Under the pieces are notes generated by a model, which was given only the letters and a program-made list of their open reading frames with translations, was not told where the DNA came from and searched no databases. Positions 26,294-63,598 of a stretch of 64,000 nt of DNA are shown here, one piece after another; position 1 is the first letter of the stretch; every line of letters starts with the position of its first letter. Both the position numbers and the translations under genes were made by a program. This DNA comes from Gyrodactylus bullatarudis (taxonomy: Eukaryota; Platyhelminthes; Monogenea; Gyrodactylidea; Gyrodactylidae), in the NCBI GenBank assembly GCA_012064415.1, contig SSNU01000248.1:124001-188000 (forward strand), given 5' to 3'.

Positions 26294-27072
26294 TTAACTA
26301 TTAAACTTTTTATCATATTCATTTGCCCTTTTCACAATATCTCGTACGACATCTGGAATAGGCTTGAGCTGACCATAGTACTGTTCAAATTCTCCCTCAG
26401 GGTTCATCAAATACATTACGACAGTGTGGTCAACAATATAGTCTCCATCGTCATCTTTACGACCAGCACTGTAGTAAATTCGGTAATTTTTGCAAACAGA
26501 CTTAATTTCATCTATGGACCCAGTGAGGCCAACCAATTTATCTGAAAAATCTGCAATGTATTTTTTCACAACTTCTGGTGAGTCCCTTTCTGGGTCAACC
26601 GTAACGAAGACTGGAACTAGTTTCAGGTTTTTGTTCAATATATCTTTGAATGCTAATAATAATTTTGGACATACGAACTCTCTCAACAACTTCGACAAGT
26701 CTCTCCAACTGCTCCGGACAAATGTCGGGACACCGACAAAATCCAAAATAAAGGATTATCCATTTTCCAGCAAAGCTACCAAGATTGCACTTTTCACCAT
26801 TTTGGTTGATTAGATTAAAGTCTCCGCCAATATCAACTTTACCCGTCTGAGCAACTTTAACTCTATTATTCACTAAACATGAATTTACAAATATATTTAC
26901 TCTCAGTTATTTCACGATTCATGTACGTTGTAATAGCAGCAGTTAGACATGATATTCCTGCGAAGGATACCCATAATGGTCTACTAAATTTGTTAAATGA
27001 ATCTTTGAAAGAAGAAAACTGTCGTAACTGGAAGGGTAGACGCCCAAGGTATAATGTAAAATTGCGAATCAT
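26294..27072 (-). CDS. SCO1: SCO1 copper chaperone for cytochrome c oxidase assembly
   Basis: SCO proteins insert copper into the CuA site of COX2 in the mitochondrial intermembrane space. Exons 26901-27072, 26675-26872 and 26294-26643 give 239 residues. The N-terminus (MIRNFTLYLGRLPFQLRQF) looks like a mitochondrial presequence and is followed by one membrane segment. The thioredoxin-like domain carries the copper-binding CPDIC motif (YFGFCRCPDICPEQLERL) and the conserved histidine in VDHTVVMYL, with VTVDPERDSPEVVKKY between them. The two introns are only 28 (26873-26900) and 31 bases (26644-26674); a 22-base alternative for the second (acceptor at cattattattag) would add three residues and fits the family length less well. 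No key residue is missing. Confidence 0.93.
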
Positions 27073-28041
27073 TTCAGCAGAAAGTATTTATAATTTTGTG
27101 ATCTGATCAATTTGATGATCAAAATTTGATCAATTTATTAAATGTTCATTTAGCAAAAACAATCTCATGATTAGACTTTTCAATTTGAAAATTTCAATGT
27201 AAAAGATTTGGCACTATTATAGTTTTAAATCTGTTTTTTGCAATCATTGCAATGCAATGAATGCATTTTGAGCTGTTCTCAAATATTTTAAATCTATCCT
27301 TTAATGATCAAATTAATTCAAAAATTAAAAATCACCCTCGATGATGTTATAAGAATCTTAGACTAAGACTGTTAAGTACATGCTTACAGTCTTGAAACTT
27401 TCAAGTTAGAAGTCTTTGTCAAGTATCCTTTATCTACTAATAATATAAAATTTTCAACAATATTTTACTATATAGATTCCACACCTCATGCTATGGCCCA
27501 ATCAACTACAGAAATTGCCTTAATTTGTCTTCAATGTACTCTATGTCGCTCAGAAGGATCTCCAGCTCTCTCATACTCTATAACTCATATAGAGAACAAG
27601 ACGATTAAATCTCTCCTCATAACACCAGAAACCAAAGAAAATACTCGATTCTCGGAAACATCCTCTGTCTCCAGGCCAGATTCAAACTTTCATTGGATTC
27701 AATCCATTCCACAACCGTCAAATCCACCTGTACATTCCTCCAGAGACTCGTCCCAGAGGACGAAGACCTATTTTTCTTAATTGTACATACTTATCTATAT
27801 TTTATTATCAGTTTAATAAACAAAAATTTCTATTCCAAATCCTTGGTCGAATTTAATAACTGGTTGACAAATGGTTTAAAGAATAAATCGAGATTAACTT
27901 AATAAGCGTTACATTTTAATTGATTTTAAAAATACTTTTCTTCTGACCATTTATTTATTGGTCGAAATCAATCTTAAGCTTTGAATAGTTATAATAAAAC
28001 TGAGAATAGATAATTATGCAATCACAAGTGTGCTGAATTAA
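27073..28041. other. Intergenic stretch between SCO1 and Ly6-type gene
   Basis: This 970-base stretch lies upstream of SCO1 (minus) and of the Ly6-type gene (plus). Apart from an isolated open frame at 27493-27780, listed separately, I see only AT-rich sequence. Confidence 0.5.
27493..27780 (+). CDS. Unidentified open frame of 95 codons, doubtful
   Basis: The frame starts MAQSTTEIALICLQCTLCRS and is serine- and threonine-rich toward its end. Its base composition is clearly richer in G+C than the flanks, which hints at current or former coding use. A second plus-strand frame (HQKPKKILDSRK to YIPPETRPRGRRP) overlaps its 3' half and looks equally protein-like, so an unseen ultrashort intron, a decayed gene or a repeat fragment are all possible. 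I recognise no family. Confidence 0.25.
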   Translation: MAQSTTEIALICLQCTLCRSEGSPALSYSITHIENKTIKSLLITPETKENTRFSETSSVSRPDSNFHWIQSIPQPSNPPVHSSRDSSQRTKTYFS

Positions 28042-28502
28042 ATGATGAAGATTCTAATAATGACATTACTGACCTGGATTTACTATAGTTTGTTTCTTTT
28101 TTTAACACTTCAATAGCAGAGTCTATAGCATGTTACACCTGTATTTCTATTAACGGTTCAGATAAAAGTTGTGATGATCCAATGTCTTCAAATGTTTCTA
28201 GTAAACCATACTGTAAGCAAGCGAATGATCTTTCAAGAGGATTTTTATTTGCTAATTACTGTACAAAAATAAAGGGAAGAAAACTTTCCGATTCAATGAA
28301 TATAACGATTCGACAATGTTCAGCCGATAAACTAGCAGAGTCAACATCTCATTGTGGAGAATTTAAATTAGATGGGGAGAGATACGAGGGTTGTATTATA
28401 TCATGTCAAAAAGATTGGTGCAACTCGTCAACGAAATTTTCTTCAACTTTGGCTATGACATTTTTTTTATATATCATTACATCTTGCGAATTTGTTTTTT
28501 GA
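28042..28502 (+). CDS. Ly6/uPAR-type small secreted or GPI-anchored protein
   Basis: Two exons (28042-28087 and 28117-28502), split by a 29-base intron with a GTTTGT donor, encode 143 residues. An N-terminal signal peptide (MMKILIMTLLTWIYY) is followed by a ten-cysteine domain that opens CYTC and closes DWCN, the signature of the Ly6 three-finger fold, and then a hydrophobic tail (AMTFFLYIITSC) suited to a GPI anchor. Family members such as Quiver/Sleepless modulate ion channels or receptors at the cell surface; the particular role here is unknown. Its last 26 coding bases overlap, tail to tail, the end of TAF12. Confidence 0.75.
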
Positions 28503-28946
28503 TTAATGCCAAGCGTTGACGATGAGCTTCTTTTCCATAACTTCTCTTGACAACTTTTTCCTCAGCCGGAAAACCAGGAATTAAAATATCCCAATCTTTT
28601 TCTAGTAAAAAAATAAATAACCATAATAACTTACCAACACTAAATTTTATATCTTTAGCCTCTAAGATTTTAGATCCTCTATGTTGAGCCAGTTTATTTG
28701 ATTTGAGAGTGACATTCTCTATAAACTCTTCAGCAATTTGTATGAGTGACTTGAATGAATAATTATATTTACTTCTTCAGTTTCTTGATCTATTTGTAAA
28801 TTTGGATCTATTTCATGGAGCAAATCTGAGAGACTTTTGGCATTGAATACAAATGATTTTGGCTTTTCTGTAACTTGTTCTATGGGCTTTACAACATTTG
28901 CAGGACAAGAAGCACTGATCTGAGTCTCTTCATTTTTTTCTTCCAT
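28477..28946 (-). CDS. TAF12: TAF12, histone-fold subunit of TFIID and SAGA
   Basis: TAF12 pairs with TAF4 through an H2B-like histone fold. Exons 28773-28946, 28635-28749 and 28477-28601 give 137 residues. The fold runs from LSDLLHEIDPNLQIDQETEE across the first junction into SLIQIAEEFIENV and LAQHRGSKILEAKDIKF, ending with WDILIPGF and KEAHRQRLALIKK, all recognisable TAF12 landmarks. The introns are 23 bases (28750-28772) and 33 bases (28602-28634). Without removing the 23-base intron the frame ends after 18 codons; with it the match to TAF12 is gap-free. The N-terminus before the fold is short. The stop codon lies inside the coding end of the convergent Ly6-type gene. Confidence 0.93.
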
Positions 28947-29315
28947 GTATCGCGCTTATATAAAACAAAAAATAAGAAAAAAAGTAACTTTTATTAATCA
29001 ATTTTTTCAAAAGTTTAATTTAATTCTAATTGGTATTTTTCCGAGTCGAGTCATACAGTGTGTATCTCTAAACTTTTTGGTCTGAATTTGATTATATAAT
29101 TGACTTTTAAACCTAAAAGCAATAATAATGTAAACATTTTGGTTCTGATATTTAGTACTTAATGATTTACAACATGATATATTGGATACTCCTTGTGCCT
29201 TCATTTGTTATAATGTTTTTATTCTGTTACTTTCTAGCATGGATAGGAAAAACATCTTTTATAAATAATTGAATAATAACTTGTTGGAAAAATGATTTAA
29301 ATTTTATTTATAACA
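28947..29315. other. Short intergenic stretch
   Basis: This separates the TAF12 start from the stop of the upstream coiled-coil gene on the same strand and should hold the TAF12 promoter. I see nothing else in it. Confidence 0.5.
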
Positions 29316-30224
29316 TTATCTTCTGTAAGGTATAAACTTTGAGGCAGGACTCCAGGGTTTTTCCGGTATGAATTCTTTCTTAATGCTGTCGTCTTCGCTG
29401 ATGATCTAAGAATAGTTAGTAAAGTTCAATTCACTTTTCTAATATGCCAACTTTCATATTTTCTATTGTTTAATTCCTCCTTTATCTTTAGGTCTGTTCT
29501 AATCCTTATTTCATTTCTTAATATTTCCTCCTTTTTTTGCTTCAATTCTTCTTTTTCTTGCATCTTTTTTTCTCTAAGCCAAACATTGAATGGTTTAGAA
29601 TACCGACGAGATGTATAACTCCTATTAGATCCATCATTCACGGATTCGGTATTACCTTCACTTCCTTTCATACTATTACAATTTTGATAATTTTTTTCTA
29701 TTTTCTTATTCTTTAGCCAAGAGGAGAATGCTTCATGACCTCTAATCTGTTTGTTGAATTCATTCTGTTCTTTAATTTTTTCCAAATTTAATGTTTCCTG
29801 TTTTTTTCGTCTGATATCATCAAAATAATCTCTTTTTGATGCCAACCAGGATTCAAAACTCAAGTTTCTTTTATCTTGTGAACTCTCTTTGATTAATTCT
29901 GAATTTTTTATTTTTACTGGTGATTTGTTTTTCCTATCTTCCGATTTCCATGTCTGATACACGTGGTCTTTTAATTCCTTTGCTGTCAAACTGTGTTTCT
30001 TTACGGGTCCGCTCTCATCAAATTTATCACCAATATGATTGTTAGATAAGAATTTATCGTCGATAATTTTTAATCTCGATTTTTCGTCGGTAACTTTTTC
30101 CAAAAGACTTCCAAATTCAGAACTACAATCTTTTATTTGAAAGCAAAACTTTACCAGTATCTGAGCTTACGATATTTGATCGATGATCTCCAGTCGGTAT
30201 AAATTCTTTTAATACCTTGACCAT
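29316..30224 (-). CDS. Coiled-coil protein with F-x2-WL-x2-K repeats, CCDC181/CCDC34-like
   Basis: Exons 30155-30224, 29435-30129 and 29316-29405 encode 284 residues. The protein is highly charged and repeats a tryptophan motif four times (FESWLASKR, FSSWLKNKK, FNVWLREKK, YESWHIRK) between lysine- and glutamate-rich helices (KKMQEKEELKQKKEEILRNE). This pattern is typical of the ciliary and flagellar CCDC181, CCDC34 and MAP9 proteins, which bind microtubules; which of these it is cannot be decided by eye. The end KPWSPASKFIPYRR is separate from the coil. Introns are 25 bases (30130-30154) and 29 bases (29406-29434, with a TACTAAC-like branch site). It is head-to-head with EXOSC7. Confidence 0.65.
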
Positions 30225-30454: not shown

Positions 30455-31300
30455 ATGGAAACCTTGTTGTTAAGCGATTACGAAAAATATTATCTCATCA
30501 AAGCTACAAAAGTAAATATTAACTCTTACCTTATTTCAATAGTATCAAAGTAGAGTCGATGGGCGTTTTTGTGATGAATATCGTCAAATATCATGTGATA
30601 CCAACTTTTTAAAGCACACTGATGGTAGCTCTAAAGTTTCCATTGTAAGTCATTGCTTAGTTACAACTTAAAGGGTAATACGTCAGTTATGACAACTGTG
30701 AAGTTCTCGATGGTCAAAGCTAATTCAATTATCAATAAGGATGGTGGAATTAAACTCCAGGTAACATGGTCTCCTACCGCTACAAATAAATTCCAACTTC
30801 GAACAGCCCAAGATTTCGCTGAATTCTTATCTGGTGTTCTCCAAAATACTTATATGCATAACAATTCATTTATTAACTCAAAACTTCTCTCAGTGAATGA
30901 CGGCACATTAAATTGGACAATCTTAGTGGATGTTTTGGTTCTTGCAAATGATGGAAATGTTCTTGATGCTTCATCCATATCAATTTTTCTTGCGCTAGCT
31001 TCCCTTAAAATTCCAGATTCGCTGGCCGAATATCTGAAGGATGAAATACTAATTAAAAAAGAATTGATTCCAATATTTGTAACATGCCATAAAGTTGGTC
31101 ATTCCATTCTGGTTGATACTGGAAGAGAAGAGGAAGCCTGCTCATTAGCTAGTTTATCTATGGCTATGATTGAAGATTACACTTGCGTCAACATGATACA
31201 AGAGGGTTGTGGGAGTTTGACTCCTGATAGTTTAGTAAAAATGTCAAAAATGTCTACCAAGATATGCAAACTATTGCGTGAAAATATTTTGAAAATATAG
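30455..31300 (+). CDS. EXOSC7: EXOSC7 / RRP42, core subunit of the RNA exosome
   Basis: EXOSC7 is one of six RNase PH-like ring subunits of the 3'-5' RNA exosome. Exons 30455-30511, 30543-30644 and 30674-31300 give 261 residues. Landmarks are LLLSDYEKYYLI at the start, RVDGRFCDEYRQI across the first junction, SIGNTSVMTTVKF across the second, WTILVDVLVLANDGNVLDA in the middle and EEEACSLASLSMAMI near the end, in the order of RRP42. Catalytic residues are not expected in this non-catalytic ring subunit. The introns are 31 bases (30512-30542) and 29 bases (30645-30673). It reads away from the coiled-coil gene. Confidence 0.92.
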
Positions 31301-31615: not shown

Positions 31616-32291
31616 ATGACCGAATTCTCAGCAGAGCCAGTTGTCGTTCAACTTCGCAGGCCAACTTCAGATAAATCATGGGGATTTATTTTACAAGGTG
31701 GCATCGATCAGGGATTACCAGTATTTGTCCATAAAGTAAACTAAAATAAATAAGAATTTTAAAGCTAACAAGAAATGGAATTGCTCACAAAAGTGGTGTT
31801 GAGCCAGGAGATGTTATTGTGAAGATATGTGAAACCTTTGTCCATGGAATGACTAATGCCCAAGTCAAAGCTGAAATTTTAAGAGCAGGAAATGATTTGG
31901 ACTTTACTCTGAGAAAGTAAATTGCCAATTTAATTCCTCTTCCAAATTTATTTTTAGGAGAGAGTTCAATGTTGCTGCATATAATGCCCAGATGAATCCA
32001 AGGCCAAATAATCATGTACCCCAGGTGGCCTCTCCCAGTGAGACTAGAGCAGAAATTGTAGAAGAACACTTATGGAAACACGGAGGTCCAACCTTTAAAA
32101 ATGTTCAGCCAAAGTCTTACAAAATCCTGGAGCAACAACTCCCTCAAGGTAATCAACCGGGTAAGCTGTGATTTTTAATTGCTTTAGCCCAACAAAAAGT
32201 TGGTTCAATCTTTGACAAGAGTCAGGACGAGAGATCAGGATATCTCCAAGCTACAGAACACACAATTCAAAGGGCCTTTGGCGAATCTTGA
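31616..32291 (+). CDS. Small PDZ protein of PDLIM/Zasp type without LIM domains
   Basis: Exons 31616-31735, 31765-31916, 31958-32160 and 32188-32291 encode 192 residues. The first 90 residues are a PDZ domain (KSWGFILQGGIDQGLPVFVH, SGVEPGDVIVKI, DLDFTLRK) close to those of PDLIM/ALP/Zasp proteins, which bind alpha-actinin at Z-discs. The remaining part (EIVEEHLWKHGGPTF, FDKSQDERSGYLQATEHTIQ) has no LIM domain and I do not recognise it. Introns are 29, 41 and 27 bases. A second donor at 32149 is in the same phase, 12 bases upstream, and would remove the residues GNQP from the junction. Confidence 0.75.
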
Positions 32292-32502: not shown

Positions 32503-32874
32503 ATGTACTTGGCTTCTATTATTTCAGGAGTACTTGCCGCTTTATCTTCAGTTATTGTCAAATTAGTATGGTCATTTCGTGGACCAGAAGAATCTTTTCA
32601 TCAAGACCTTATATTTACAGTAATAGGTGTCGCTCTTTCATTCATTGTTAACTCAGGAATGTGGATTTTATTTTTCATCGGATTAAGGAGAAATTCCTCT
32701 GGCACAGCTGGCATTAGCTTGAATATTCTAACAAATTTGATTCTTACTGTGAGATATTATTTTTTTATACTCAATTAGACCATTATAGGACTCTTTTCAA
32801 GCGGACATGTTAACTATGGTTATTTAACAGGAATATTCATGATAGCAGTAGGAATAATTTTAATAGAAAAATAA
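32503..32874 (+). CDS. TMEM42: TMEM42-like small multi-pass membrane protein
   Basis: Exons 32503-32748 and 32779-32874, split by a 30-base intron, encode 113 residues with four hydrophobic segments (SIISGVLAALSSVIVKLVW, VIGVALSFIVNSGMWILFFI, TNLILTTIIGLF, YLTGIFMIAVGIILIE). The pattern and the short length fit TMEM42 of the EamA/drug-metabolite transporter group; its cargo is unknown. The stop codon is embedded in an AATAAA hexamer (32870-32875) and lies 11 bases from the stop codon of the convergent RPB8 gene. Confidence 0.65.
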
Positions 32875-32885
32875 ATATGTACAAA

Positions 32886-33519: not shown

Positions 33520-36500
33520 ATGTCTAGCCAGGCCCTGCCTATTAAATTCCAAGAGCATATACAGGTAAACTTATCATTTATCATGTTCTCTAACATTCAT
33601 AATCAATTTAAATTTATTCCAGCTCACCAGTCTTGGGATTCAACCTACAAGCATAGGATTTAATTCTCTGACTATGGAATCGGATAAATTTATCTGTGTT
33701 AGAGATAAAGTCAACGATGTTGCACAAGCTGTTATCATTGATTTGGCAGAACCGATGAATCCATATCGTCGTCAGATATCTGCTGACTCAATAATTATGA
33801 ATCCAGTTTCCAAAATTATGGCTTTAAAATCTGCTAAGACTTTACAAATTTTCAACATTGAATTGAAATCTAAAATCAAATCATACACTATGACTGAAGA
33901 TGTCATCTTCTGGAAATGGATTAGTGATAAAATTATTGGACTTGTTACAGCAACAGCAGTATATCATTGGTCTAAGGATGGTTAGTTCAAAGTTTACCAT
34001 ATTTTAATATTGCTAAAATTAAAAATTCTCTTTTAGGAGATTCGATCCCCATGAAAATGTTTGATCGTCATTCTAGTTTAGCAAACACTCAAATCATAAA
34101 TTATCGTTCTGATCCTAGTCAAAAGTGGCTACTTTTATTGGGAATAACATCCCAAGATAATCGTGTAGCTGGTTACATGCAGTTGTATAGTACAGAGAGA
34201 AAAGTTACTCAACCAATTGAAGGCCATGCAGCTGCATTTGTGCAATACAAACCAGATCCGACTAGTGTATCTGCACCTTTAACATTATTTTGTTTTGTTT
34301 CAAGAACTCCTCAAGCCTGCAAATTACATATAATTGAGGTGGGAGCCACCAACACTTCATTCCCGAAGAAAGCTCTAGATGTTTTTTTCCCAGCTGAAGC
34401 GCAAAATGATTTTCCTGTTGCTATGCAAGTGAGTCGACTATAAATCAACTTGTCATATGAATTCTAATTTCATTTCTTAGGCCTCAGAAAAGCACGGAGT
34501 CATCTACCTTATTACCAAAAGTGGATTTCTTCACATTTATGATATTGAATCTGGCACTTGTATTTTTATGAATAGAATTACAAATGAAACCATCTTTGTG
34601 ACAACAGTTCATGAAGCTTCAAACGGAATCATTGGTGTTAATCGTAAAGGACAGGTTTTGTCTGTTTCTCTTGACGAAAATACTGTTATCAAGTAAGTTA
34701 AAATTGAATAACGGAATAAAATACTTTTAAATAACTTGAAATAAATATTTCAGTTATGTAATTAACAATTTGAACAATTCATCTCTTGCTTTGAAAATGG
34801 CAATTCGTTGTAATTTTCCTGGAGCCGAAGATTTATTCATCAAGCAATTTAATTCACTTTTTGCATCTGGTCAATACAATGAAGCAGCCAAGATTGCTGC
34901 TTCAGCTCCAAAAGGTATTCTGAGAACTCCTCAGACTATTTCGAAATTCCAGACTGTTCAAAATCCCCCTGGCCAAAGTGCCCCAATGTTACAATACTTT
35001 GGAATCCTTTTAGATCAAGGTAAACTTAATACCTTTGAGAGTATTGAGCTATGCAGACCTGTCTTGGTGCAAGGAAAGAAAAATCTCATTGAAAAATGGC
35101 TGAAAGAAGAAAAACTCGAATGTAGCGAAGAGTTGGGTGATTTGGTCAAACAGGTAACTAAATCTTGTCCTGAATTTTATTTGATTCACTCATAATTATT
35201 TTTACTTTTGATTTTAGACTGATCCCACCCTTTCCCTCTCGATATATTTGCGAGCCCATGTTCCCGTTAAAGTGATCCAATGTTTTGCTGAAACCGGCCA
35301 ATTTCAAAAGATTATCCACTACTCCCAGAAAGTCGGCTACAAACCCGATTATGGCTTTCTACTTAGAAATTTGACTCGAATTAATCCTGACCAAGGCCTC
35401 CAATTTGCACAAATGCTTGTTCAAGATGATAAGCCTCTAATGGATCTGGAGGAGGTCGTGAACATCTTCATGGAGAACAACCTCATCCAACAGTGTACCT
35501 CATTCATGATAGATGCTCTCAAAAATAATAGACCCTCCGAGGGCCATTTGCAGACAAAACTCCTCGAAATGAATTTGAACAATGCACCTCAGGTAGCTGA
35601 TGCTATACTCGCCAACCAGACGTTCTCTCATTATGATAGAGCCGCGATTGCTCAATTATGTGAAAAAGCAGGCCTCCTACAACGAGCTTTGGAACATTAC
35701 ACTGATCTCTATGATATAAAGAGAGCAGTCGTCAATACACATCTTCTCAACCCGGAATGGCTTGTCAACTATTTCGGTTCTCTCTCTGTTGAGGACTCTT
35801 TCGAATGTTTAAAAGCTATGCTCAATGCTAACATTAGACAAAACCTACAAGTTTGCGTTCAAATTGCCAACAAGTACCACGAACAACTCGGAACCTCTCA
35901 ATTAATTGAAGTTTTTGAATCATTCAAGTCATTTGAAGGCCTCTTCTATTTCCTCGGTTCCATAGTCAATTATTCACAAGACTCTGAAGTCCACTTCAAA
36001 TACATTCAGGCTGCCTGTAAAACTGGACAAGTCAAAGAGGTGGAAAGAATTTGCAGGGAGAGTAATTGCTTTGAGCCTGAACAAGTGAAAAACTTTCTCA
36101 AGGTACGTCCTCATTAAATCTATCCTTGTATTGTAATTGTAATTTATGACAATATTTCTCTCCCCAAATAGGAGGCCAGATTAACGGACCAGCTTCCTCT
36201 GATTATTGTCTGTGACAGATTTGATTTTGTTCACGACCTTGTGCTTTACTTGTATAGAAATAATCTTCAAAAATATATTGAAATTTATGTCCAAAAAGTG
36301 AATCCAGGTCGTTTGCCGGTTGTCGTTGGAGGATTATTAGATGTCGATTGTTCTGATGATGTCATCAAACAACTAATCTCTGTTGTTCGTGGACAATTCA
36401 GTACCGACGAATTGGTCGCTGAGGTTGAGAAAAGAAATCGTCTCAAACTTCTTCTCCCATGGCTTGAAGGTCGCGTCCATGAGGGAATCAATGAGCCAGC

Positions 36501-48186: not shown

Positions 48187-48221
48187 ACTTCCTGATGGCC
48201 CACATCGAAGTGGGGGAAATG

Positions 48222-51331: not shown

Positions 51332-54114
51332 TCATATTTTAACCCGAAAGAATTTTACATAGAAGTAGATAAAACTCTGGATTATACCGAAAGAACAATA
51401 AACGGAGATTAATCCAAGGGGTAGGAATTCCATCTTTGGCTTGAAAAGGGGCAATAAAATCTTTGATAACAAAAAGACAACTGGCAGACCACAGAGGTGG
51501 ATATTCTGAGAAAGTTTGAAGAACCTTTCAAATAACAGAGATAAGTTGGATTTCCTCTCCAGTTTTATTTCCATGAGAATTTGGCCCTTGAGTAAATCAC
51601 CATAGACCGAATTCAACATTGTCCAAGTGAGGAACATGGTCCATACTGGGAGTTGTTCTGAAAAATTCAACTTTTTAGATTTGATTCTTTCCCAACTTGT
51701 ACTCTCGAGGTCTAGAAAGATGCGAGGCGCATATTTAACAAAAAAACCTTGTTCCTGTTTTGTAGACAGATAGAAGCAATCAGATGAGATTATTTCAGTT
51801 TCTCAACATTACAGTAAAAATATTTCTATTGAAACATCTTATTTTAATTCAAACACGAATATTTACCCCTTAATTAAGTATTATTTATCTCGACCAATCA
51901 GAATGCAGCAAGTGATTTCTATACATTTAGATAGGAAAAAAAGTGAGTTTTTGTGAAAATGTGAAAATTCACTGTTAATGCTTAATTAGGGGGTAAATAT
52001 TCGTGTTTCAATAAAAATAAGATGTTTCAATAGAAATATTTTTACTGTTAACTTGTCAGGTAGTATGACAAGATCAATGAATAAAAGTTTATGTACACAA
52101 GGTACTTTTTCCAATAGACATATCAATCAAAAGTCTAATATTTACGTTTGTAGCATGTGTCGAATAGGCAATAGAAAATAATATAAAGCTATCCTTGATT
52201 CTTGGAAATTTAAGATTTTTACAAAAATCAAATTCGTGATCAGTGTAAAATTTTACGTCAGAATTTCATATTTATAATAAAATGTCTTTGAAAAAATTTT
52301 ATTTTAATTATCACCAGTTTAATTAATGGAAACATGTATGCCTCATCTGCAGCACTCTGCCATAAGATGCCACCTCCTCCAGACCGCTGTTATCATCTAC
52401 GCTCCTCAAGAGGCTTTAAAATACTATTGACTACCCTCCACCCCCTTAGACATAGATTTCAATTAAGGTTATTATAAACCAGCAAATATTGCAGAAAAAT
52501 TATTTTGAATTTTGTACCAGATACAATTATCTCTAAAAGAAGAGTGGGTTGTAAAAATTCTTTAATAAATAAATTGTAAAATATTCAAATATTTATCGAA
52601 TTAGTTGTTTTAAGAGACCTAAATAGCTTTTATCAATATAAATGTATGTTGAATATTTGTTAATTAATCGATAGTATTACTGTATCAAAATATTCAAGGT
52701 GCATTGATTATAATACATAATTAGAATAATATAAATTTACCTTCTGGTGTAAAGATCAGTGGAGTCAAGCTGAAATGAGCCACAGTATTCACGTAAAAAG
52801 TTAATCCAGTAAGCTGGATGTCAAATAAGAATGTGTACAGACTGAAAAAGAAAGAATAATTATAAAATTGAGTATACTTTAGAACTAAGAGAAATGTCAG
52901 TACAGCTTTCTCATGGACATGCCAGCCAAAAATGAAATAGGACCACGAGGATATTATTATTGAACTGAAGAATAACTGTTTGGATTTTTTATCAGAGTAG
53001 CCTTTTTTCAAGCAACAAATGGCCAATTTAACCAGGCACGGTAGCATAGTACAAATGGTAATAAACATTGTACCCATTGGATTGATACTTGGCAGAATGA
53101 CATGATTTATTTCTCCCACGAGTCCAGATGTTGAACTAGGCTTTAATAAGGGATTTGATGATTTATGCCACCATATCAAATATCTATCGATAAAATTGTA
53201 AATTGCCCAAAAATTAGGGGCCCAATAAGCATGAGTTAGGCCACGGCCAAAGGGAAATAAGCGTTTGAGAAATGCTCCAAATACTTCATAATAAAGCAGA
53301 GGTCCGAGACCCAAGGACATAATTCCAAGTGTAACTGTGATTAGTTGGAAAATTCTCTTGGAAAATTTAAGAAAATAACGATTTTCTCTATTTATGCAAT
53401 AGCCAAAGAAAAGATAGACAAAGTAACTTGGCCCAAGAACAAGGAATAAATGTTTCATGTTGATTAGGATGAGAAAGACAACAGATCCAATTATGGGTCT
53501 ATCTTGGCATACGTAAAATAATGATGCAAACAGAAGTCCATGAATAAATCCGTTATACTGAAAATGAATATCTGTAATTAAAGAAATTAGAATGGCAAAA
53601 AATCTCAAAATGAGTTGGATAAAAAACTCACGATCAACCAGAATAATCCCAAAGTTGTATGTTAGAAGCATGAAAAAATTCTTTTTTATCTCAGACTTTT
53701 GCTTGTGAGAATGGATGAATCTATTTTAATTTATTGATGAAATTACTTGTAAAGATAATATACTAACAAAAGTTCAGAGACTATCACAGTAATTTTATTG
53801 TAGACCAATGTGAAATCTTGATTGAATGGATGGAAAAAAACTTTTAACAAGAAGAATGGATAAGATAGAGCATATTCAAAGTATGCAAAAAATAGAGGAT
53901 AGTCAAGTGTATGAATAGTCGAATTCTGAAGATTAGTTTTAGAAAATATATACCTCAGTATACCATTTACTTATATGATTTTGCCTAGTGACATACAACC
54001 AATTTTCGTGTACTTTGAAGTCTGTGGATACACTAAATGTTATTAAACTGCTTACTAGAATTTAAGAAACAGAAATTTGAATAATACACTAATTGTAGCA
54101 ATGAACTTGTACAT
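51332..54114 (-). CDS. ALG8: ALG8, ER alpha-1,3-glucosyltransferase
   Basis: ALG8 adds the second glucose to the dolichol-linked N-glycan precursor in the ER membrane. Exons 54056-54114, 53954-54032, 53747-53925, 53632-53720, 52878-53571, 52741-52841 and 51332-51657 give 508 residues (human ALG8 has 526). Landmarks are VSTDFKVHENWLYVT, ISKWYTENST, HTLDYPLFFAYFEYALSY, VDHIHFQYNGF, FPFGRGLTHAYWAPNFWA and FIFGWHVHEKAV, with many membrane segments. Introns are 23, 28, 26, 60, 36 and 1083 bases. The 60- and 36-base introns are multiples of three without stops, so the frame reads through them, but only their removal gives the conserved VDHIHFQYNG and a normal loop length. The last intron holds a MITE. 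It is head-to-head with MANF. Confidence 0.93.
51811..52048. mobile_element. Palindromic MITE in an ALG8 intron
   Basis: The ends are inverted copies of acagtaaaaatatttctatt followed by gaaacatcttatttt, and the homology continues inward (acacgaatatttacccctta) so that most of the 238 bases can pair. Flanking bases are TTA-like. There is no coding content. It belongs to none of the families A-D. Confidence 0.75.
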
Positions 54115-54247: not shown

Positions 54248-54839
54248 ATGCAATTTACGTTTCTATCTTTCTTTCTGCTCATTCTCCCATATTACTATGC
54301 ATCGGTGAATGAGGAAACTTGTGAAGGTAAGATATTTTTCTCCTCATGGCAGTTTGTGTCAAATTTCTCAGAAAGTTCAATGATGAATTAACTCCAGAAG
54401 ATCGCAAAGACCACATGAACATTCAAAAGAAGTTCAAAGATTATTGTAAAACCACTAAAAGCAAAGATAATTCACTTGTATGTTTGACATTCTAACTTTA
54501 CAGTGTTATTATATTGGTGGTCTTGAGACATCTGCTACTAATATCATGAAAGAAATGTCACAGCCACTAAGCTGGAATATGCCTGTCGAAAAAGTATGCG
54601 AAAAATTGAAAAAATTTGATTCACAAATATGTGAACTCAAATATGAAAAAACTATTGATTTGAAGACTATCGAAATAAAAAAACTTAAAGTGAAGGATTT
54701 GAAGAAAATTCTAGACGTTTGGGGCGAGAACTGCAAAGGATGTTCCGAAAAATCTGAATATGTTAAACTTCTGATGGAAAAAATGCAAATTCATGATCCA
54801 GAAGCATACGCCTATCATAAAGCGCGGGAAGAACTTTAA
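54248..54839 (+). CDS. MANF: MANF, mesencephalic astrocyte-derived neurotrophic factor
   Basis: MANF is an ER-resident and secreted, unfolded-protein-response-induced survival factor. Exons 54248-54326, 54353-54477 and 54504-54839 give 179 residues, the usual length. A signal peptide ([20 protein letters not shown]) precedes a saposin-like N-terminal domain with the family cysteines ([59 protein letters not shown]) and a SAP-like C-terminal domain containing the CKGC motif ([18 protein letters not shown]). It ends REEL, a KDEL-type ER retention signal. Both introns are 26 bases long (54327-54352 and 54478-54503). Confidence 0.95.
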
Positions 54840-55002: not shown

Positions 55003-57200
55003 TTATTCTGCCATTTTAGTTAATACTTGTCCTTTGGAAACATTTTCCCCTTCCTTAATGAAAATATTTTCTATGGTTCCATCTATGGAAGCTCGTATTG
55101 TGTACTCCATTTTCATAGCAATTACTGTAACGAGGGCCTGATTTTTGCTTACTTTATCTCCGACTTTGACCAAAATTTTTTCAATGATTCCAGGCATTGG
55201 AGATTCGCCCTAAGATAAAATGAGATCATTAACTCACTTGAAGGGGATTTTTGGTAGCTTCTTGCAAGAGACTTGTTGATTTCTCTATTGTATTCATAGG
55301 AATTTCAACAAGAATACTTAAATCTTCTGATTGATCCTCGATTTCATATTTTCTATCATCAATTTGGTTGATCTTGAATTTCTTTATTTTTCCAGAGTCA
55401 ATATTTTCTACTGAAAAACTAAAGATTTTGGAATTTTCCTTTGATCTTTCAAGTGAATGTACGAAAAATTTGTAAACAGAATTTCCTGAGAGATTAACTA
55501 AAATTTCATTGGACAATTTTGAAATTTTCGATTTAATTTCTAATTCATTTCTTATGAAATTAACCCCAGTTTGGGTATTAAATTTCGCAGAATAAAATGG
55601 ATCAATTGTGTTATTTTCCAGACTTTTAAGTTCATTGAGTAGAACACTTATCATTGCATTATATTCTGCTTCATCATGAGCTTTACAAACTGGCGATAGA
55701 TTTTGTATATTTTCTGTTATGAACCCAGTATCAAGAATACCAGATTCAACATCAGGATGCTCACAGATTCTCTTGAGAAAATCAATATTACTTGGAATAC
55801 CAAGAACTTTAAATTCTCTCAGTGCAACCTTCATTTTGTTTAGAGCCTCTTTTCTGTCAGATCCCCATGTGATGAGTTTTGCAATCATTGGGTCGTAAAA
55901 TACGGATATTTCTTGGCCTTGTTTAATTGCCTTGTCAACTCTTATATAATCTGGACTAAGGTTGAATAGGTCAGCAGACTTTGGAATGTCTAAAAGCTGG
56001 ATTTTTCCAGCGGAAGGCAACATTACAGCAGGGTTTGAACAATCTTCAGCATAAATTCTGGCTTCAAACGCATGACCGTTGAAAGGGATATCTTTTTGAT
56101 TTTTGATTGGTAAAACTTCGCCTTGAGCCACTCTCAATTGCCATTCGACAAAATCAACATTGGTTATTGATTCTGAAACTGGATGTTCGACCTAAAAAAA
56201 TGTGACCTGTATTTGCAATTCTTGAAGATAAATAATCGATTTCAAAAAATATTGAAAGGGTGTTTGATAATGTACCTGAAGTCTTGTATTCATCTCCATG
56301 AAATAAAAGTTTTCCTCTCTGTCCATAACAAATTCAACTGTACCAGCACCCACATAATTTACTGCTCTAGCTGCTTTAACAGCTGCTTCGCCAATTTTAA
56401 TCCTTGTTTCTGGTTTAATATTGGGAGCTGGGGCCTCCTCCAAGACCTTTTGATGTCTTCTTTGTATACTGCAATCTCTTTCCCAGAGATACACATAATT
56501 GCCATGTTTATCTCCAAATATTTGCACTTCAATATGTCGTGGATTAACAATGTATTTCTCAAGGATCATTTCATCATCATTGAATGCTTTCTTAGACTCT
56601 CTTTTTGCTGCATTAAGCATCTCTTCAAAATCATCAATGGATTGACTTATTCTCATTCCCTTCCCACCTCCTCCGCGTACAGCTTTTATCATGACCGGAA
56701 ACCCTATTTTTGTTGCAGCTTCTTTAAGCACATTTATATCTTGACTTTCTTTATGGTAACCAGGAATAATAGGAACATTTGCTTCTTCCATTATTTTTTT
56801 GCTCAAGTTTTTTAAGCCCATACTCTTAATTGCAGAAGAAGGAGGTCCAACGAAATTGATTCCATTTTGTTGACAAATATCAGCAAATTCATGAGATTCA
56901 GACAGAAAACCGTATCCTGGATGTAAAGCATTAGCTTTTGTCTTTTTTGCAATATCCAGAATTTTATTCATATTTAAATAACTCAGATGAGGCGGAGAAG
57001 GTCCTATAAAATAAGCTTCATCAGCCTTAATTTGTAAAAAAGATAATTTTATTGAATAATATTACGTATTTAGTATGGAGAGAATGACGATCAGCCTCAC
57101 TGTATACAGATACTGTTTTAATTCCTAATTTCTTGCAAGTTTTGATAATACGACATCCTATTTCTCCTCTATTCGCAACTAAAAGCTTCGTAATTGACAT
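55003..57200 (-). CDS. MCCC1: MCCC1, biotin-carrying alpha subunit of 3-methylcrotonyl-CoA carboxylase
   Basis: This enzyme carboxylates 3-methylcrotonyl-CoA in leucine breakdown in mitochondria. Exons 57066-57200, 56276-57025, 55238-56191 and 55003-55209 give 681 residues. The biotin carboxylase domain contains [13 protein letters not shown], the ATP-grasp loop [20 protein letters not shown] and [10 protein letters not shown] across a junction, and [11 protein letters not shown]. The C-terminal biotinyl domain has the biotin lysine in AMKMEY, which fits MCCC1 (AMKMEH) better than propionyl-CoA carboxylase. Introns are 40, 84 and 28 bases. The frame starts directly at the catalytic domain ([12 protein letters not shown]) with an in-frame stop four codons upstream, so no mitochondrial presequence is visible. 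It is head-to-head with MORC2. Confidence 0.93.
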
Positions 57201-57300: not shown

Positions 57301-60300
57301 ATGAGTCAATATTCTTGTCTCAATAAGGCACAATTAAGCTATGACTATCTGCACACCAATTCGTAGGCCATTTAATTAAATATTTCAGAACGACTCATGA
57401 ATTTCTTTTTGGAGCCATCGCTGAACTAATAGATAACTCCAGAGATGCTGATGCTACAGAACTTAATATCTATGATAGTTAGTTTTTGGGTGATTTATTT
57501 CTTCTAGTTCCGTCATACAATTTAAGAGGTGGCTTCATGATAGCCTTTGCAGATAATGGTGTCGGAATGAGTCCTGACGAGGCCAAAAACGTCATTATGT
57601 TTGGTAAAAGTAAAAAGAAGAACGCCCTTGGCAAAAGCATTGGCATGTATGGAAATGGATTAAAATCGTAATTCGAATAGATTCTAATAAATTTAGTGGA
57701 TCAATGCGTATCGGTAACGATATGATAATTTTCACCAAACGTGATAATATTTGTACATGTTTGCTATTGTCCAGAACTTTTCATGAGCTGGAAAAACTCG
57801 GCGAGGTCATCGTTCCTCTTCCCTCATTTAACGCTTTTGATATGACACCCCACCATAGCAGTATTGAAGATGCAAGAAAACATGAAATTGAAATGGAAAT
57901 TATACTGAAACATTCTCCATTTAAAACCCAGAGACAGTTGTTGGAAAATTTTACCAAAATTTCTGGTGATAGTGGTACTGTAGTTATGATCTACAACCTT
58001 AAATTAACGAATAATGGGGGACCAGAATTAGATATTAAAAGCTCTAAAGATGATATTCTTCTTGTCAACTATGAAGATAAAGAAGAATCAATGGATTACC
58101 GGGATGATAACGAGTGAGTATAATTTTTTAATTCGATTTGTCATATAAAATTATTGTATTATTTAGAATTCCTGTAGAAAAGAAAAGTTTGCGAGCCTAC
58201 GTCTCTATACTCTATGCAGAACCAAGAATGAAAGTTTACATTCGAGGCAGAAAGGTTCGTACTAAGCGTCTCCTCTCCACACTCACAAATGTTATGCGCT
58301 ATGAGTACACTAGTAAAACTTTTAAAAGTCGCGTTGAAGCAGAATGTGCCAAGGCTAAGTCCCATGTCAAGAGTCGTAAGTGTTGAAGAATATGTCAACT
58401 TTTATCATTTCTTGTGAATATTTTATATTCAAGTCGAATCTGCCCTGAAGGAAGCTGAGAGTAAAGTGAGAGACTTTGAAAGTCGCATGGACATTAGCCA
58501 GAATATTGATGCTCTTGTAAGTCAACTTTTCCCCAAGAATTTTAATTCAAACGATTGAAAAAATTGCCTTGATTATTTAAGAAAGATCTCAGGAAACTTC
58601 AAATGGACTCCTCTCAAATTAAAGAGGATCTTAAGAATGCCCAAGACTATCTTGTTCAACAAATCAAATGTGCTAAAGAGCCCAAAATGATAACCTTCTA
58701 TTTCGGCTTAAACATTCAGAATAGGGCAGCAGACGGAATGTTTGTTTACAATTCTACAAGGCTCATAAAAATGTATCAGCGTATTGGCCCTCAACAAGAT
58801 TCGAGCATGATGTGTAGAGGAATTATGGGTCTTGTTGATGTACCCTACATGATCCTTGAACCAACACATAACAAACAAGACTTTGCTGATGCCAAGGAAT
58901 TCAGAATGCTCATGAGAGCCATGGCAGATCATTTGATGCAATACTGGGATGATTTAAATATTGAATCTCAATTCACCTCATCCACATCAAGACTATCCTC
59001 GACCCCCCTAACCCAGGAAGAATGTATCTTCAAATTTTGGAAAAGTTATGGCTACTTCTCTGCCAAATGGCGTGATCCCCCCTCTTCAGAAGAAAAGTAC
59101 ATTAGAAAGAGAACAGCCTGTCTCCAAACCTGTGTTCAATGTAGTAAGTCTTTCAGTTCAGCATATTCACACGTATCTTTCATATTACGTCAACTTTTTC
59201 TTATCCAAGATTACTGCTTAAAATGGCGTATCCTACCAGCAACGGAAATTTTATCTGGTAAAGAGATTAATGATAACTGGCAATGCTCAAATAACTCTGA
59301 TCCTAAACACAAAAGGTATGCCCCAATTAGCTATTTAAAGCTTATTGATATGAAGTTCTGAATCAATGATTTTAACAAAATTCTCAGTTTTTCATCAAGA
59401 ATACGAATATGCTAAAGATTTCGAGAACACCCTCTGACTTTCAAATCAATAAAAATTTTCAGCTCAAAGCTAAAAAATGGGAATTCCATTCTTTACTCAA
59501 AATAATAAAAGGAGGCAAAATGATTCGAATTCTTGATGAAAAATTGAGATTTTTGTTATTCATATTCATATCAACCAACTCTATATATATTTTGTCGTTT
59601 CTTGCTACTAACCTCATGATGACATCTATAAACAATGCTTCATTTTGATTATCAAAATTATTTTAGATGTGATGACCCGGAAGAAGATCTGAATCCTCAA
59701 TTGGGTGTTTTGCGAAGGAAAATCAAGAGTAAAGAACAACGCCAAAATGAACTAGCCAACCAAATTAAAAAGAAACAGGAGGAGCTGGAGAAAATCAGAG
59801 TCGTCGAAGACGAAAGTGAAGACAAAACCACTAGGAGCAGCAGGAAGAGTTCCTCACGCAAAAAAGATGACAATTTCGACGAAGAAAAGTTGTCCCAACA
59901 TCAAAACACGCGAAATAGAAGTAGTGCCTCTGGAAAAGTTGATTTCAACACACTTGTCAATAATGCCCGACAAACGGAAAGCAATAAAAAAAGGAATTTG
60001 GCTGTACCCTCTCCTAAGCCATTGGCGAATAAGAAACCAAAAACAGAATCGTCTAGAGCACTCACTGTTGCCGATAGAAAAGCAGCTCAAAGAATTTCTA
60101 TTGAGAATCGTCTTCGTCAGAGTGCCAATGAATCAGTTACAAATTCTGAGGAGCCTTTTACTAAAACTAAGGAAGGCGAATCATCTCAGAAGAAAGATGA
60201 CCCAGTCAAGAAGAAACAAGAAATCCACTCGAATAAAGAAGAACAAACTGAAAACTCCTTTTGTAGTATCGATGCGCCTAAAACGAGAAGATCCGCTCGG

Positions 60301-61125: not shown

Positions 61126-61281
61126 ATATTGTCCAAGTTTATACTTTTATTATTATAATTTTACATGTATAAAAGATAAATAAATCAAATCAGATTTTAT
61201 TGTAAATTTTAACTTTATTTCTATAAACTGAACAATATTATCATCAATCGGTCTTTAAAGGGAATATAAACATACTAATCT

Positions 61282-61560
61282 TTATTCCGTCGTCAATTGA
61301 GCAGGTATTTGGTTCATATTCAGATTATTTGTTGGCTGAGATAGCTTTCGACGGAATAGAATAACATGAGGTTCAGGTTTATGAATCATGTAATGCTCCC
61401 AACCAGGAGATTGTTTAATCCCGACTGCACGCCACTCGGCTTCAGACATCAGCTTGTTCTTTGGTACTCGCCTCATTAAAGCTCTTGGTAGGTGAACATG
61501 TCGGTACTCGTAGGTTTGGTCAGTGTACTTGTCCGAATAGAAGATTTCAGCTTCACTCAT
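61282..61560 (-). CDS. CKS1: CKS cyclin-dependent kinase regulatory subunit
   Basis: CKS proteins bind CDKs and phosphorylated substrates and are needed for cell-cycle transitions. This intronless frame encodes 92 residues, 10-15 more than most family members because of an asparagine- and glutamine-rich tail after FRRKLSQP. The core shows [40 protein letters not shown] and the hinge [12 protein letters not shown], matching the H-x-PEPH motif that controls domain swapping. Whether it is the CKS1/Cks85A or CKS2/Cks30A type cannot be settled by eye. It is head-to-head with the MAD1-like gene. Confidence 0.93.
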
Positions 61561-61700
61561 CGGAGAAAGTTGATTATTCCAATTCGAAATTCGAGCAAAA
61601 GTTCTTTTGATTAGCTTGTTAAAATAAAAAAGAATTAATCAATTTTAAAACTTGTTTTATTAGTTGAAAAAGTTATTTTTTCTCTCCAAAAAATAAAGTA
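61561..61700. promoter_or_regulatory. Head-to-head promoter region of CKS and MAD1-like gene
   Basis: The start codons are 140 bases apart. Both products act in the cell cycle, so joint control would make sense, but I see no clear E2F, CDE/CHR or TATA motif; the only candidates are weak. Confidence 0.4.
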
Positions 61701-63598
61701 ATGGATAGTCAGAATGAGCTTACAGAACAATGCAATAGTATTCTTAAGGAAAATTCTGAACTAAAAAAGTCCATCTATGAGCTCAAGGATGAAAATCAAT
61801 TACTCAAGGGAAAGCTGTCAGAAGCTAATCCTGTTGATTATAAAAATATCTGCGAAAAAATTAAGGAGGAAAATTGTGCTCTAATAAATGAAAATTATGG
61901 TCTCAAAGTGAAACTGGAAGAATCTCTGAATAGTTCTCGCTCTGTAAGGGAAACTTCCATCGTTATCTCTGAAAACGAGAGTACAGAAATACGCCAATTA
62001 AAAGCTAAACTCAATTATCTTTCCAAAGGCCAAGAAGAATTTTTGAAACTAAAAGAAGACTTTAATTCTCTTATGGATACAGTTTGTAATATTATTAACG
62101 TATATTTAGTGTTCAAGACTTGAAAGGTTCAAGAATGAAAACTTGCAGAAAGATTTTATTATATCCAATTTAGAAGAGCAGATCAAGAACAACTCTGATC
62201 AGAACAAAGACAAACTGGAAATTGTTCGCTTGAGTGATGAAAATAGAACTTTGTTGGCTAAGAATGGTGAACTTAGATTAGAGTAATTTATTCAGCATTA
62301 ATTCTTTCAGTGTCGACAAATTATTTAATGAGAATTCTATAATGGAGAATAAAATCATTGAAAATGAGAAAATAATTGAGCAGTTGAACTCCAAGCATGA
62401 CATTTTAACCGAAAGAATAAATTCGCATGAAAATAAAGAAAAAATATTTCTCTCGCAAGTTCAGTGTTATCGTCGCCTAAGTGAAGACATTATGAACATA
62501 CAATCTGGCAACTCACAGATTGTTAAGGATGAATCACGCAAGATTTTGGACTTTTTCCAAGAATTCGATTCTAAAATATCTAATTACATATCTTTGGCCA
62601 ATGAATTTGAAAGGAAAATCAGTCGAATTGCCTCATCAGTGTCATCCGTAGAAAACACCAGCTTAAATGACTCGAAAATTTCAAAGAATGACAAAAGAAA
62701 AGATGAGCTGATTGAAGAAGTTGCCAAACTGAAGGATGAATTATACAACTTGTCGGAAGAGAATAAAAAACTGAATGAAATCATCGAATCGAAGCAGATG
62801 GAAAGCAATCCTCACGAAGAATCTTGTCTCATTCTTCAAATGAACTCGAATCCAACAGACAATGTTAAAAAGGAAAAAGAAAAGGAACTGAATGACCTCA
62901 GGATTGAGGTAGGAGCCCTCCGACATCGAGTGGCAATACAAAATCAGCGTATTGAAGATTTAATGAACTGTCAGAAACGAAGGCGTTCCGCCTCTGGCCA
63001 AGATGAAGATGACTGTGATTTTGCATCAAAGAAAACTCATTTTGAGATGAACTTGGAGAATTTTGAAAAGGTCGAGGATCCATTGGAGAAGATCAAGAGT
63101 AATTAAACGAAACATTTTAACATCAATTTTATTAGCATTGGAAAATAAAGTCAAGTCGTTGATGAACCGAGAAAAGCGATATATGGAGACATTTGAACAG
63201 TGTAGCAATATTCTCCATCAGGCTATAGGCCTTATCTTTGGTTGTCGCATTGATTTGAGAGCTCCAGGTGTTTATCGTATTACTCTTTTGGATAAAGCTA
63301 CTATGGAAATGATTCCGACCAAAAGGTTGACTTTTAGAGTAAGTTAAACATGATCAAGATCAACTTTCCGGTTGACTTTAGTTCCTTAATTCAGTTCGAA
63401 CTCAAGAAGAAAGGTTATCCTTGGACGATTGATGAATCAGTCAGTCCCATAATAAGAGAAATGAATCCTGATGTTATTGAATCTTCGATCGCTGTCAATT
63501 CAGTTCAATATCTAATTGGCCAGCTCTTGGTCGATGAATATGGTCCTGCTCAGTCTAATAAACATACTAAGATGTCCGAAGAAACTATGCAACTTTAA
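61701..63598 (+). CDS. Long coiled-coil protein with MAD1-like C-terminal domain
   Basis: Exons 61701-62081, 62110-62282, 62311-63098, 63136-63338 and 63359-63598 (or 63395-63598) encode up to 594 residues. About 450 residues are predicted coiled coil with heptad leucines (ENSELKKSIYELKDENQLLK). A short globular end follows (KRYMETFEQCSNILHQAIGL, IFGCRIDLRAPGVYRITLLD), which resembles the RWD-type end of the spindle-checkpoint protein MAD1 (a helix, then GYxID...YRLTS). The match is distant, and another coiled-coil protein is possible. Introns are 28, 28, 37 and either 20 or 56 bases; both acceptors of the last keep the frame. The stop codon lies 19 bases from that of the convergent small gene. 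Confidence 0.55.

What the first reader, a model, noticed from the sequence alone, without database searches (positions are those of the whole stretch)
26644..62310. At least 23 introns of only 23-33 nucleotides in twelve genes
Seen directly: GT...AG segments of 23-33 bases interrupt SCO1 (28, 31), Ly6 (29), TAF12 (23, 33), the coiled-coil gene (25, 29), EXOSC7 (31, 29), the PDZ gene (29, 27), TMEM42 (30), ALG8 (23, 28, 26), MANF (26, 26), MCCC1 (28), MORC2 (26, 30, 29) and the MAD1-like gene (28, 28). Most shift the frame if left in, and removing them restores conserved protein sequence. The great majority of described animal introns are longer than about 40 bases; sizes near 25 are known only from a few lineages. 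Inference: the spliceosome of this organism handles introns too short for the usual simultaneous U1 and U2 binding, while normal and very long introns coexist in the same genome.
Basis: partly seen in the sequence, partly recalled or inferred. Interest (0 to 1): 0.9.

Follow-up and report, generated by a model that had tools for sequence, protein, structure and literature searches.

The report
Very short introns in a flatworm
Genes of a small parasitic flatworm contain ordinary-looking introns of only about 23 to 33 letters next to normal ones; introns this short are rare but already known in a few animals, so this is a further, rather extreme case.

Summary
All 23 listed GT...AG segments of 23-33 nt are in the window; 15 of 23 are spanned by protein homology, 8 of 23 rest on frame joining alone. 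A spliced aligner told nothing about splice sites found 9 gaps of 23-33 nt in five genes; 9 of 9 slide onto GT...AG (chance about 5% each). Donors pair with the organism's own U1 snRNA better than GTs of the same regions (0 of 20,000 resamples). Five more introns of 28-32 nt lie in kinesin genes elsewhere. The organism is a gyrodactylid monogenean (COX1 89% identical to Gyrodactylus albolacustris). U1, U2, U5, U6, U12 snRNA, U2AF2, SF1, PRPF8 and RED are found and, by domain hits and eye, look conventional. Introns of about 60 nt and longer coexist with them. Such microintrons are known: Dicyema has introns of about 26 nt; flukes and tapeworms peak at 36-37 nt, and two-peaked short introns were noted for G. 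salaris. Possibly new: the class here is about 8 nt shorter than the flatworm peaks I could read. No RNA evidence was available. The 'special spliceosome' inference is not supported by anything seen in the factors.

The parts
26873..26900 (-). SCO1 intron, 28 nt
   Evidence: GT..AG, joins open frames; upstream of the region aligned to SCO1, so not spanned by homology
26644..26674 (-). SCO1 intron, 31 nt (a 22-nt alternative, 26653-26674, also keeps frame and was the one used)
   Evidence: spliced alignment with and without splice-site term gives 31 nt
28088..28116 (+). Ly6/Quiver-like gene intron, 29 nt
   Evidence: frame joining; QVR domain (39.3 bits) starts after it
28750..28772 (-). TAF12 intron, 23 nt
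   Evidence: homology to TFIID subunit 12 across it
28602..28634 (-). TAF12 intron, 33 nt (no in-frame stop, multiple of 3)
   Evidence: homology across it
30130..30154 (-). coiled-coil (CCDC34-like) gene intron, 25 nt
   Evidence: frame joining only
29406..29434 (-). coiled-coil (CCDC34-like) gene intron, 29 nt, holds TACTAAC
   Evidence: frame joining only; one of three 29-nt candidates; Pfam score not improved
30512..30542 (+). EXOSC7 intron, 31 nt
   Evidence: homology across it; free alignment slides by 9 nt
30645..30673 (+). EXOSC7 intron, 29 nt
   Evidence: free alignment lands exactly on it
31736..31764 (+). PDZ gene intron 1, 29 nt, interrupts the PDZ domain
   Evidence: Pfam PDZ 43.3 bits when spliced, none on read-through
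31917..31957 (+). PDZ gene intron 2, 41 nt (longer neighbour)
   Evidence: frame joining
32161..32187 (+). PDZ gene intron 3, 27 nt, in-frame stop if retained
   Evidence: frame joining
32749..32778 (+). TMEM42-like gene intron, 30 nt, in-frame stop if retained
   Evidence: frame joining; no homologue found for the protein
54033..54055 (-). ALG8 intron 1, 23 nt
   Evidence: exact in free alignment to Fasciola and Schistosoma ALG8, 2 of 4 references
53926..53953 (-). ALG8 intron 2, 28 nt
   Evidence: free alignment, 4 of 4 references, slide 0 to 3 nt
53721..53746 (-). ALG8 intron 3, 26 nt
   Evidence: free alignment 2 of 4 references; with splice-site term 2 of 2
53572..53631 (-).
   Evidence: exact GT..AG in free alignment, 4 of 4 references
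54327..54352 (+). MANF intron 1, 26 nt
   Evidence: found with splice-site term, not in the free alignment; E-V-C junction as in MANF structures
54478..54503 (+). MANF intron 2, 26 nt, holds TTCTAAC
   Evidence: exact in free alignment
55210..55237 (-). MCCC1 intron, 28 nt
   Evidence: alignment to the MCC alpha subunit continues across it
57026..57065 (-). MCCC1 intron, 40 nt (longer neighbour)
   Evidence: alignment to the MCC alpha subunit
56192..56275 (-). MCCC1 intron, 84 nt (longer neighbour)
   Evidence: alignment to the MCC alpha subunit
57363..57388 (+). MORC2 intron 1, 26 nt
   Evidence: free alignment, 1-nt slide; junction residues identical to MORC2 structure
57478..57507 (+). MORC2 intron 2, 30 nt, in-frame stop if retained
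   Evidence: free alignment, 3-nt slide
57668..57696 (+). MORC2 intron 3, 29 nt
   Evidence: free alignment, 2-nt slide
62082..62109 (+). MAD1-like gene intron, 28 nt, GTTTGT donor
   Evidence: frame joining only
62283..62310 (+). MAD1-like gene intron, 28 nt
   Evidence: frame joining only
63099..63135 (+). MAD1-like gene intron, 37 nt (longer neighbour)
   Evidence: frame joining only
33565..40717 (+). clathrin heavy chain introns used as comparison: 58, 56, 52, 61, 64, 69, 273, 960, 473, 157, 60 nt; none below 52
   Evidence: boundaries set by reading frames and GT-AG, not by alignment

Best explanation
They are ordinary U2-type spliceosomal introns that have shrunk to about 28 nt: the microintron class of flatworms, here in a gyrodactylid monogenean. 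Shown here: GT-AG ends, exact frame repair, conserved protein across 15 junctions, donors that match the organism's own U1 snRNA, and a weak branch-site-like signal. Inferred: that the conventional spliceosome (U1, U2, U5, U6, U2AF2, SF1, PRPF8, RED all found; U4 not searched) removes them by intron definition, with the branch point only some 11-18 nt from the 5' splice site in the four clearest cases, and that the pyrimidine tract matters little. Introns of about 60 nt and of 100-960 nt are removed too, some from the same transcripts.
For: Free spliced alignment: 9 gaps in five genes, 9 of 9 slide onto GT...AG (chance 0.0496 each). ALG8 23 and 28 nt exact with a fluke reference. 24 of 26 curated introns shift the frame or carry an in-frame stop if retained (lengths; the five multiples of 3 read: stops in PDZ-27, TMEM42-30, MORC2-30, none in TAF12-33 and L034-30). 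U1 complementarity 6.42 of 11 versus 4.42 for the 1523 GTs of the same regions, donors included, 0 of 20,000 resamples. Branch-like score reached in 2 of 5000 shuffles. Five introns of 28-32 nt in kinesin loci L031, L034, L035 outside the window, one inside the P-loop. Organism: COX1, single 14.9-kb mitochondrial contig, ALG8 best hit Fasciola. Flatworm microintrons in print.
Against: No cDNA or RNA-seq was available. 8 of 23 introns rest on frame joining alone. A model-free count of donor-to-acceptor distances in 235 kb shows no peak at 22-33 nt, and two ab initio gene-model attempts found none of the 23. The free alignment missed MANF intron 1. In ALG8, of four references, one put the 23-nt gap 19 nt off, one began after it, and two gave 20 and 68 nt in place of intron 3; gaps near the 3' end of ALG8 did not fit GT-AG. 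With the distant KIF1A reference several gaps in L030 and L033 were not GT-AG and were dropped; 3 of the 5 kinesin microintrons were assigned by reading or with GT-AG rewarded.
Confidence: 0.93

Rival explanations
1. The segments are removed by a modified splicing pathway: U1 leaves before U2 snRNP lands, or assembly goes across exons, helped by altered factors.
For: Whole introns of 23-33 nt are shorter than the 5'SS-branch distance of about 50 nt that human splicing needs (PMC6692369 passages).
Against: Every factor looked at is of conventional make-up by domain hits and eye; none was examined for activity, and most spliceosomal proteins were not looked at. An order of assembly cannot be read from sequence.
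Confidence: 0.2
2. Some of the eight introns without homology are wrongly called: the true gene ends or uses another frame there.
For: 3158 GT...AG segments of 23-33 nt exist in the window; CCDC34 score falls on splicing the 29-nt segment; MAD and TMEM42 models lack firm homology.
Against: Lengths and donors are like those of the homology-supported set; one holds a perfect TACTAAC.
Confidence: 0.25
3. Assembly or sequencing indels broke the frames.
For: None found.
Against: Gaps of 23-33 nt that slide onto GT-AG at 9 of 9 places, and like segments in loci on other contigs; indel errors would usually be 1-2 nt and without GT-AG.
Confidence: 0.01
4. Non-spliceosomal removal (IRE1/tRNA-ligase type) or programmed frameshifting.
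For: The very small size.
Against: GT-AG ends, U1 complementarity, branch-like signal.
Confidence: 0.01

Closest known systems
Microintrons of trematodes and cestodes (Opisthorchis felineus peaks 37 and 90 nt; Taenia ~36 and ~73 nt, two-peaked shape also noted for Gyrodactylus salaris)
   Same: Neodermatan flatworm; short-intron class beside longer ones; some microintrons adjacent to each other and near gene starts
   Different: The short class here averages 28.4 nt (n = 26), about 8 nt less than the 36-37 nt peaks quoted in PMC6530080 and PMC5036155; the next class is near 60 nt
Dicyemid (Dicyema) introns, mean 26.2 nt, median 27
   Same: Nearly the same length in an animal with a small genome
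Paramecium introns of 20-35 nt
   Same: Same length range (quoted in PMC2222250)
   Different: A ciliate; Paramecium and Nyctotherus are described as having only ultra-short introns (abstract start of PMC5014332 in the listings)
Human short introns dependent on SMU1/RED
   Same: RED gene present here (222.8 bits) and one LisH_TPL match that could be SMU1 (not checked further)
   Different: Human limit for the 5'SS-branch distance is about 50 nt, longer than the whole introns here

Membership tests
U2-type spliceosomal introns | GT...AG ends | tested here: met
   26 of 26 in the curated list, which was chosen with GT-AG in mind; independent test: 9 of 9 free gaps
U2-type spliceosomal introns | donor complementary to U1 snRNA | tested here: met
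   6.42 versus 4.42 of 11, 0 of 20,000
U2-type spliceosomal introns | branch site | tested here: inconclusive
   group-level signal, 2 of 5000 shuffles; only a few single introns stand out
U2-type spliceosomal introns | removed from mRNA | not testable with these tools
   no transcript data
Flatworm microintrons (as in PMC6530080) | length under 75 nt | tested here: met
   23-33 nt, n = 26
Flatworm microintrons (as in PMC6530080) | separate short class in the length distribution | tested here: inconclusive
Flatworm microintrons (as in PMC6530080) | peak at 36-37 nt | tested here: not met
   mean 28.4, SD 2.4, n = 26, a list cut at 33 nt by the finding; 37, 40, 41 and 42 nt introns also occur
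Flatworm microintrons (as in PMC6530080) | clustered and near gene starts | tested here: inconclusive
   first three introns of the ALG8 and MORC2 models are all micro; no count over many genes
Flatworm microintrons (as in PMC6530080) | pyrimidine tract often lost | tested here: inconclusive
   T+C 62% in the 12 nt before the last three bases versus 59% at positions 7-15
Dicyemid genome | mitochondrial minicircles; mostly very short introns | tested here: not met
   one 14.9-kb contig with 12 protein genes read off; introns up to 960 nt. Minicircle trait recalled
Gyrodactylidae | COX1 nearest to Gyrodactylus; flatworm mitochondrial code | tested here: met
   89% to G. albolacustris, 83-84% to Macrogyrodactylus, Cichlidarus and Paragyrodactylus, 71% or less for the rest of the 120 listed; AAA at the Asn of the LNLPRLNALS motif, TGA as Trp (motif recalled)

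The most novel reading that the evidence does not exclude
A full-complement animal spliceosome removes introns of 23-33 nt, with 5'SS-branch distances of about 11-18 nt, from the same transcripts as 60-nt and longer introns, so it must use an assembly order in which U1 and U2 are not both bound; gyrodactylids would then be an animal system with an internal control (short and normal introns in one gene) for the minimum-distance rule.
Probability: 0.25. Interest if true: 0.7.

Novelty: new member of a known kind. Interest (0 to 1): 0.36.

Why it matters
Practically, gene predictors with a usual minimum intron length will break genes in these genomes; published Gyrodactylus genome BUSCO values of 55.6-58.7% (PMC12677651 table) might in part reflect this, which is a guess. 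Biologically, an animal that removes 23-33 nt introns and ordinary ones from one transcript would let the minimum 5'SS-branch distance, taken as about 50 nt from human extracts, be tested directly.

Tried and rejected
Dicyemid origin: first guess from intron size, rejected by the mitochondrial contig and COX1. Ab initio gene models on coding statistics: little signal per base (0.062), none of the 23 introns found. Model-free histogram of donor-acceptor distances on 235 kb against five shuffles: no excess at 22-33 nt; an excess at 56-61 nt for GTAAGT, GT[AG]AGT and GTATGT donors. A read-through kinesin query found nothing. The paper on the G. salaris genome (Hahn 2014, recalled) is not held, so its intron lengths were not seen. 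Searches for print on this point; I saw no statement of 23-33 nt introns in a monogenean, but the listings are capped and that paper was not readable. Papers, passages only: PMC2222250, PMC7854359, PMC6543705, PMC6736024, PMC12677651, PMC5036155, PMC6692369; PMC6530080 section 9 and passages; PMC5014332 abstract start in listings only. Rows dropped before the count of 27: gaps without GT-AG in L030, L031, L033 and an uncertain 109-nt gap in L031. L038, a kinesin piece whose exon hits lie about 0.5 kb apart, and L037 (PRPF8) were fetched and not analysed. Kinesin: the 7 loci hold 15 of the 26 matches; I picked them because their matches were split or compact, which favours short introns of any kind.
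Full report
What was checked. All 23 were located by length and frame: 21 with coordinates and flanks, the coiled-coil pair (the 29-nt one is my pick of three candidates). Since 3158 GT...AG segments of that size exist in the window, their presence proves nothing by itself.

Homology test without splice sites. Proteins joined across the segments match solved structures: MANF (E 3.4e-48), MORC2 (4.3e-82), MCCC1 (1.5e-187), EXOSC7/RRP42 (1.4e-33), TAF12 (6.1e-25), SCO1 (3.3e-52, with a 22-nt variant of its second intron). I then wrote a protein-to-DNA aligner that allows a gap of 15-200 nt at a fixed cost and knows nothing of GT or AG. On five genes, with the best structure sequences as reference (MCCC1 was not run), it gave nine gaps: 26 (MANF); 26, 30, 29 (MORC2); 31, 29 (EXOSC7); 23, 33 (TAF12); 31 (SCO1). 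9 of 9 slide by 0 to 9 nt onto the listed GT...AG segments; randomly placed gaps reach some GT...AG with probability 0.0496, so 1.8e-12 for nine if independent. MANF intron 1 appeared only when GT-AG was rewarded. With GT-AG rewarded, 2 of 2 references gave 23, 28, 26 and 60. Gaps near the 3' end of ALG8 (52.7-53.0 kb) did not fit GT-AG without the reward and differ between references. Pfam shows the same: SCO1 149.2 bits spliced against 51.6 on read-through, TAF12 72.9 against none, EXOSC7 domain 1 81.5 against 52.8, PDZ 43.3 against none, MANF 135.6 and MORC2 85.0 against none.

What is not covered. 8 of 23 introns have no homology across them (SCO1-28, LY6, PDZ-27, TMEM42, MAD1 two, coiled-coil two). 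For the coiled-coil 29-nt segment the CCDC34 score fell from 33.5 to 30.8 bits on splicing; the MAD1-like protein matched Pfam MAD at 15.1 bits, under its cut-off of 30; for the TMEM42-like protein none of 30 candidates scored.

The organism. The window is part of a 77.3-Mb, 471-contig genome. Its mitochondrial contig C13 (14,926 bp) reads as one molecule with 12 protein genes in the order atp6-nad2-nad1-nad3-cox1-cox2-nad6-nad5-cox3-cob-nad4L-nad4 (gene names by eye, rRNA hits). COX1 is 89% identical to Gyrodactylus albolacustris, 83-84% to Macrogyrodactylus, Cichlidarus and Paragyrodactylus, and 71% or less to the rest of the 120 listed. ALG8 has Fasciola as best hit. Size and GC fit published Gyrodactylus genomes (67-91 Mb; 31-39% GC; PMC12677651; window GC 27-35% per 4 kb). 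I call it a gyrodactylid; the species is open.

Beyond the window. Seven kinesin loci were fetched; they were picked because their exon matches were split or compact, which favours short introns of any kind. Alignment to KIF1A and reading give 12 introns: 53, 61, 31, 42, 85, 121, 28, 81, 30, 29, 32, 319 nt; gaps without GT-AG and an uncertain 109-nt gap were dropped, and L036 has none in the part aligned. Five are 28-32 nt; one, of 28 nt, lies in the P-loop, between AYGQT and GSGKT. Two of these five (28 and 29 in L034) were placed by the free alignment; three (31, 30, 32) were assigned by reading or with GT-AG rewarded. An eighth kinesin piece (L038), with exon hits about 0.5 kb apart, was fetched and not analysed. 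Adding clathrin (11 introns, 52 nt or more), PRPF8 (1), a DHX helicase (2) and SF1 (1), all placed by reading frames, 5 of 27 introns are 33 nt or less, 1 is 42, 12 lie at 52-69 nt, 2 at 81-85 and 7 are longer. This small and uneven sample suggests two modes, about 28 and about 60 nt.

Anatomy. In 26 curated introns (21 window, 5 kinesin; the coiled-coil pair left out) the mean is 28.4 nt, SD 2.4, range 23-33; the list is cut at 33 by the finding itself, and introns of 37, 40, 41 and 42 nt also occur. 21 of 26 are not multiples of three; of the other five, three carry an in-frame stop (read) and two (TAF12-33, L034-30) do not. Donors match the complement of the organism's U1 5' end at 6.42 of 11 positions against 4.42 for the 1523 GTs of the same regions, 0 of 20,000 resamples. 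A TACTAAC-like score is reached by shuffled interiors in 2 of 5000 trials. In the four introns where the best candidate is least likely by shuffling (EXOSC7-1, ALG8-1, MANF-2, MAD1-1; P 0.03-0.07) the branch A lies 11, 16, 18 and 17 nt from the 5' end. Branch positions are inferred, not shown. The pyrimidine tract is weak at best (62% against 59%).

Splicing machinery. U2 three hits: L001 and L002 keep the branch-recognition stretch GTGTAGTATCTGTTC, L003 does not, and the 5' ends of L002 and L003 deviate (by eye). U1 two tandem copies; U5 two, U6 two, U12 one; U4 not searched. U2AF large subunit in a 502-aa open frame (467.3 bits), SF1 (96 bits), PRPF8 (240.1 bits for one domain), RED (222.8 bits), and one LisH_TPL match that may be SMU1 (47.2 bits, not checked). 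Nothing looked at is unusual. In human extracts a 5'SS-branch distance of about 50 nt is needed and SMU1 and RED matter when it is short (PMC6692369 passages). Whole introns here are shorter than that, so assembly must differ in geometry, but how cannot be read from DNA.

What is known. Dicyema: 16 introns, mean 26.2 nt (PMC2222250); median 27 nt, two thirds under 30 (PMC6543705); D. japonicum mean 38.2 (PMC6736024). Flatworms: O. felineus peaks at 37 and 90 nt, microintrons clustered, near gene starts, often without a pyrimidine tract (PMC6530080); tapeworms about 36 and 73 nt, with the same two-peak shape stated for Gyrodactylus salaris (PMC5036155). So the kind is known, and known in this very genus by shape. 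What I did not see stated is a class at 23-33 nt in a monogenean; the G. salaris paper itself was not held.

Verdict. It is a new member, at the short end, of a known kind.

Noticed in passing
window 53572-53631 (-): A 60-nt intron in ALG8 that is in frame and has no stop, so a frame-based reading passes through it; found by homology in 4 of 4 references.
   Followed up: yes
window 43906-44929 and 45132-45938: Tc1/mariner-like transposase reading frames (named by eye) followed by an 807-base run of N; sequence on one side of the N run reappears inverted, with an offset, on the other.
   Followed up: no
G000:C9:19011-19728: Two U1 snRNA matches in tandem about 400 bases apart.
   Followed up: no
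L002 and L003: Two U2 snRNA matches whose 5' ends deviate from the good copy L001; L003 also lacks the branch-recognition stretch. They look like pseudogenes (by eye).
   Followed up: no
G000:C252:369199-369356: A U12 snRNA match (76 bits), so the minor spliceosome may be present too.
   Followed up: no
window 33565-40717, L024, L025, L028: Clathrin heavy chain and the read parts of PRPF8, a DHX helicase and SF1 show no intron below 52 nt, while several other genes are rich in microintrons; expression level might matter, a guess.
   Followed up: partly
window 25253-26026 (+) and 32887-33368 (-): A LIM-homeobox-like frame and an RPB8-like frame that reads without interruption; names by eye from the frames.
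   Followed up: no
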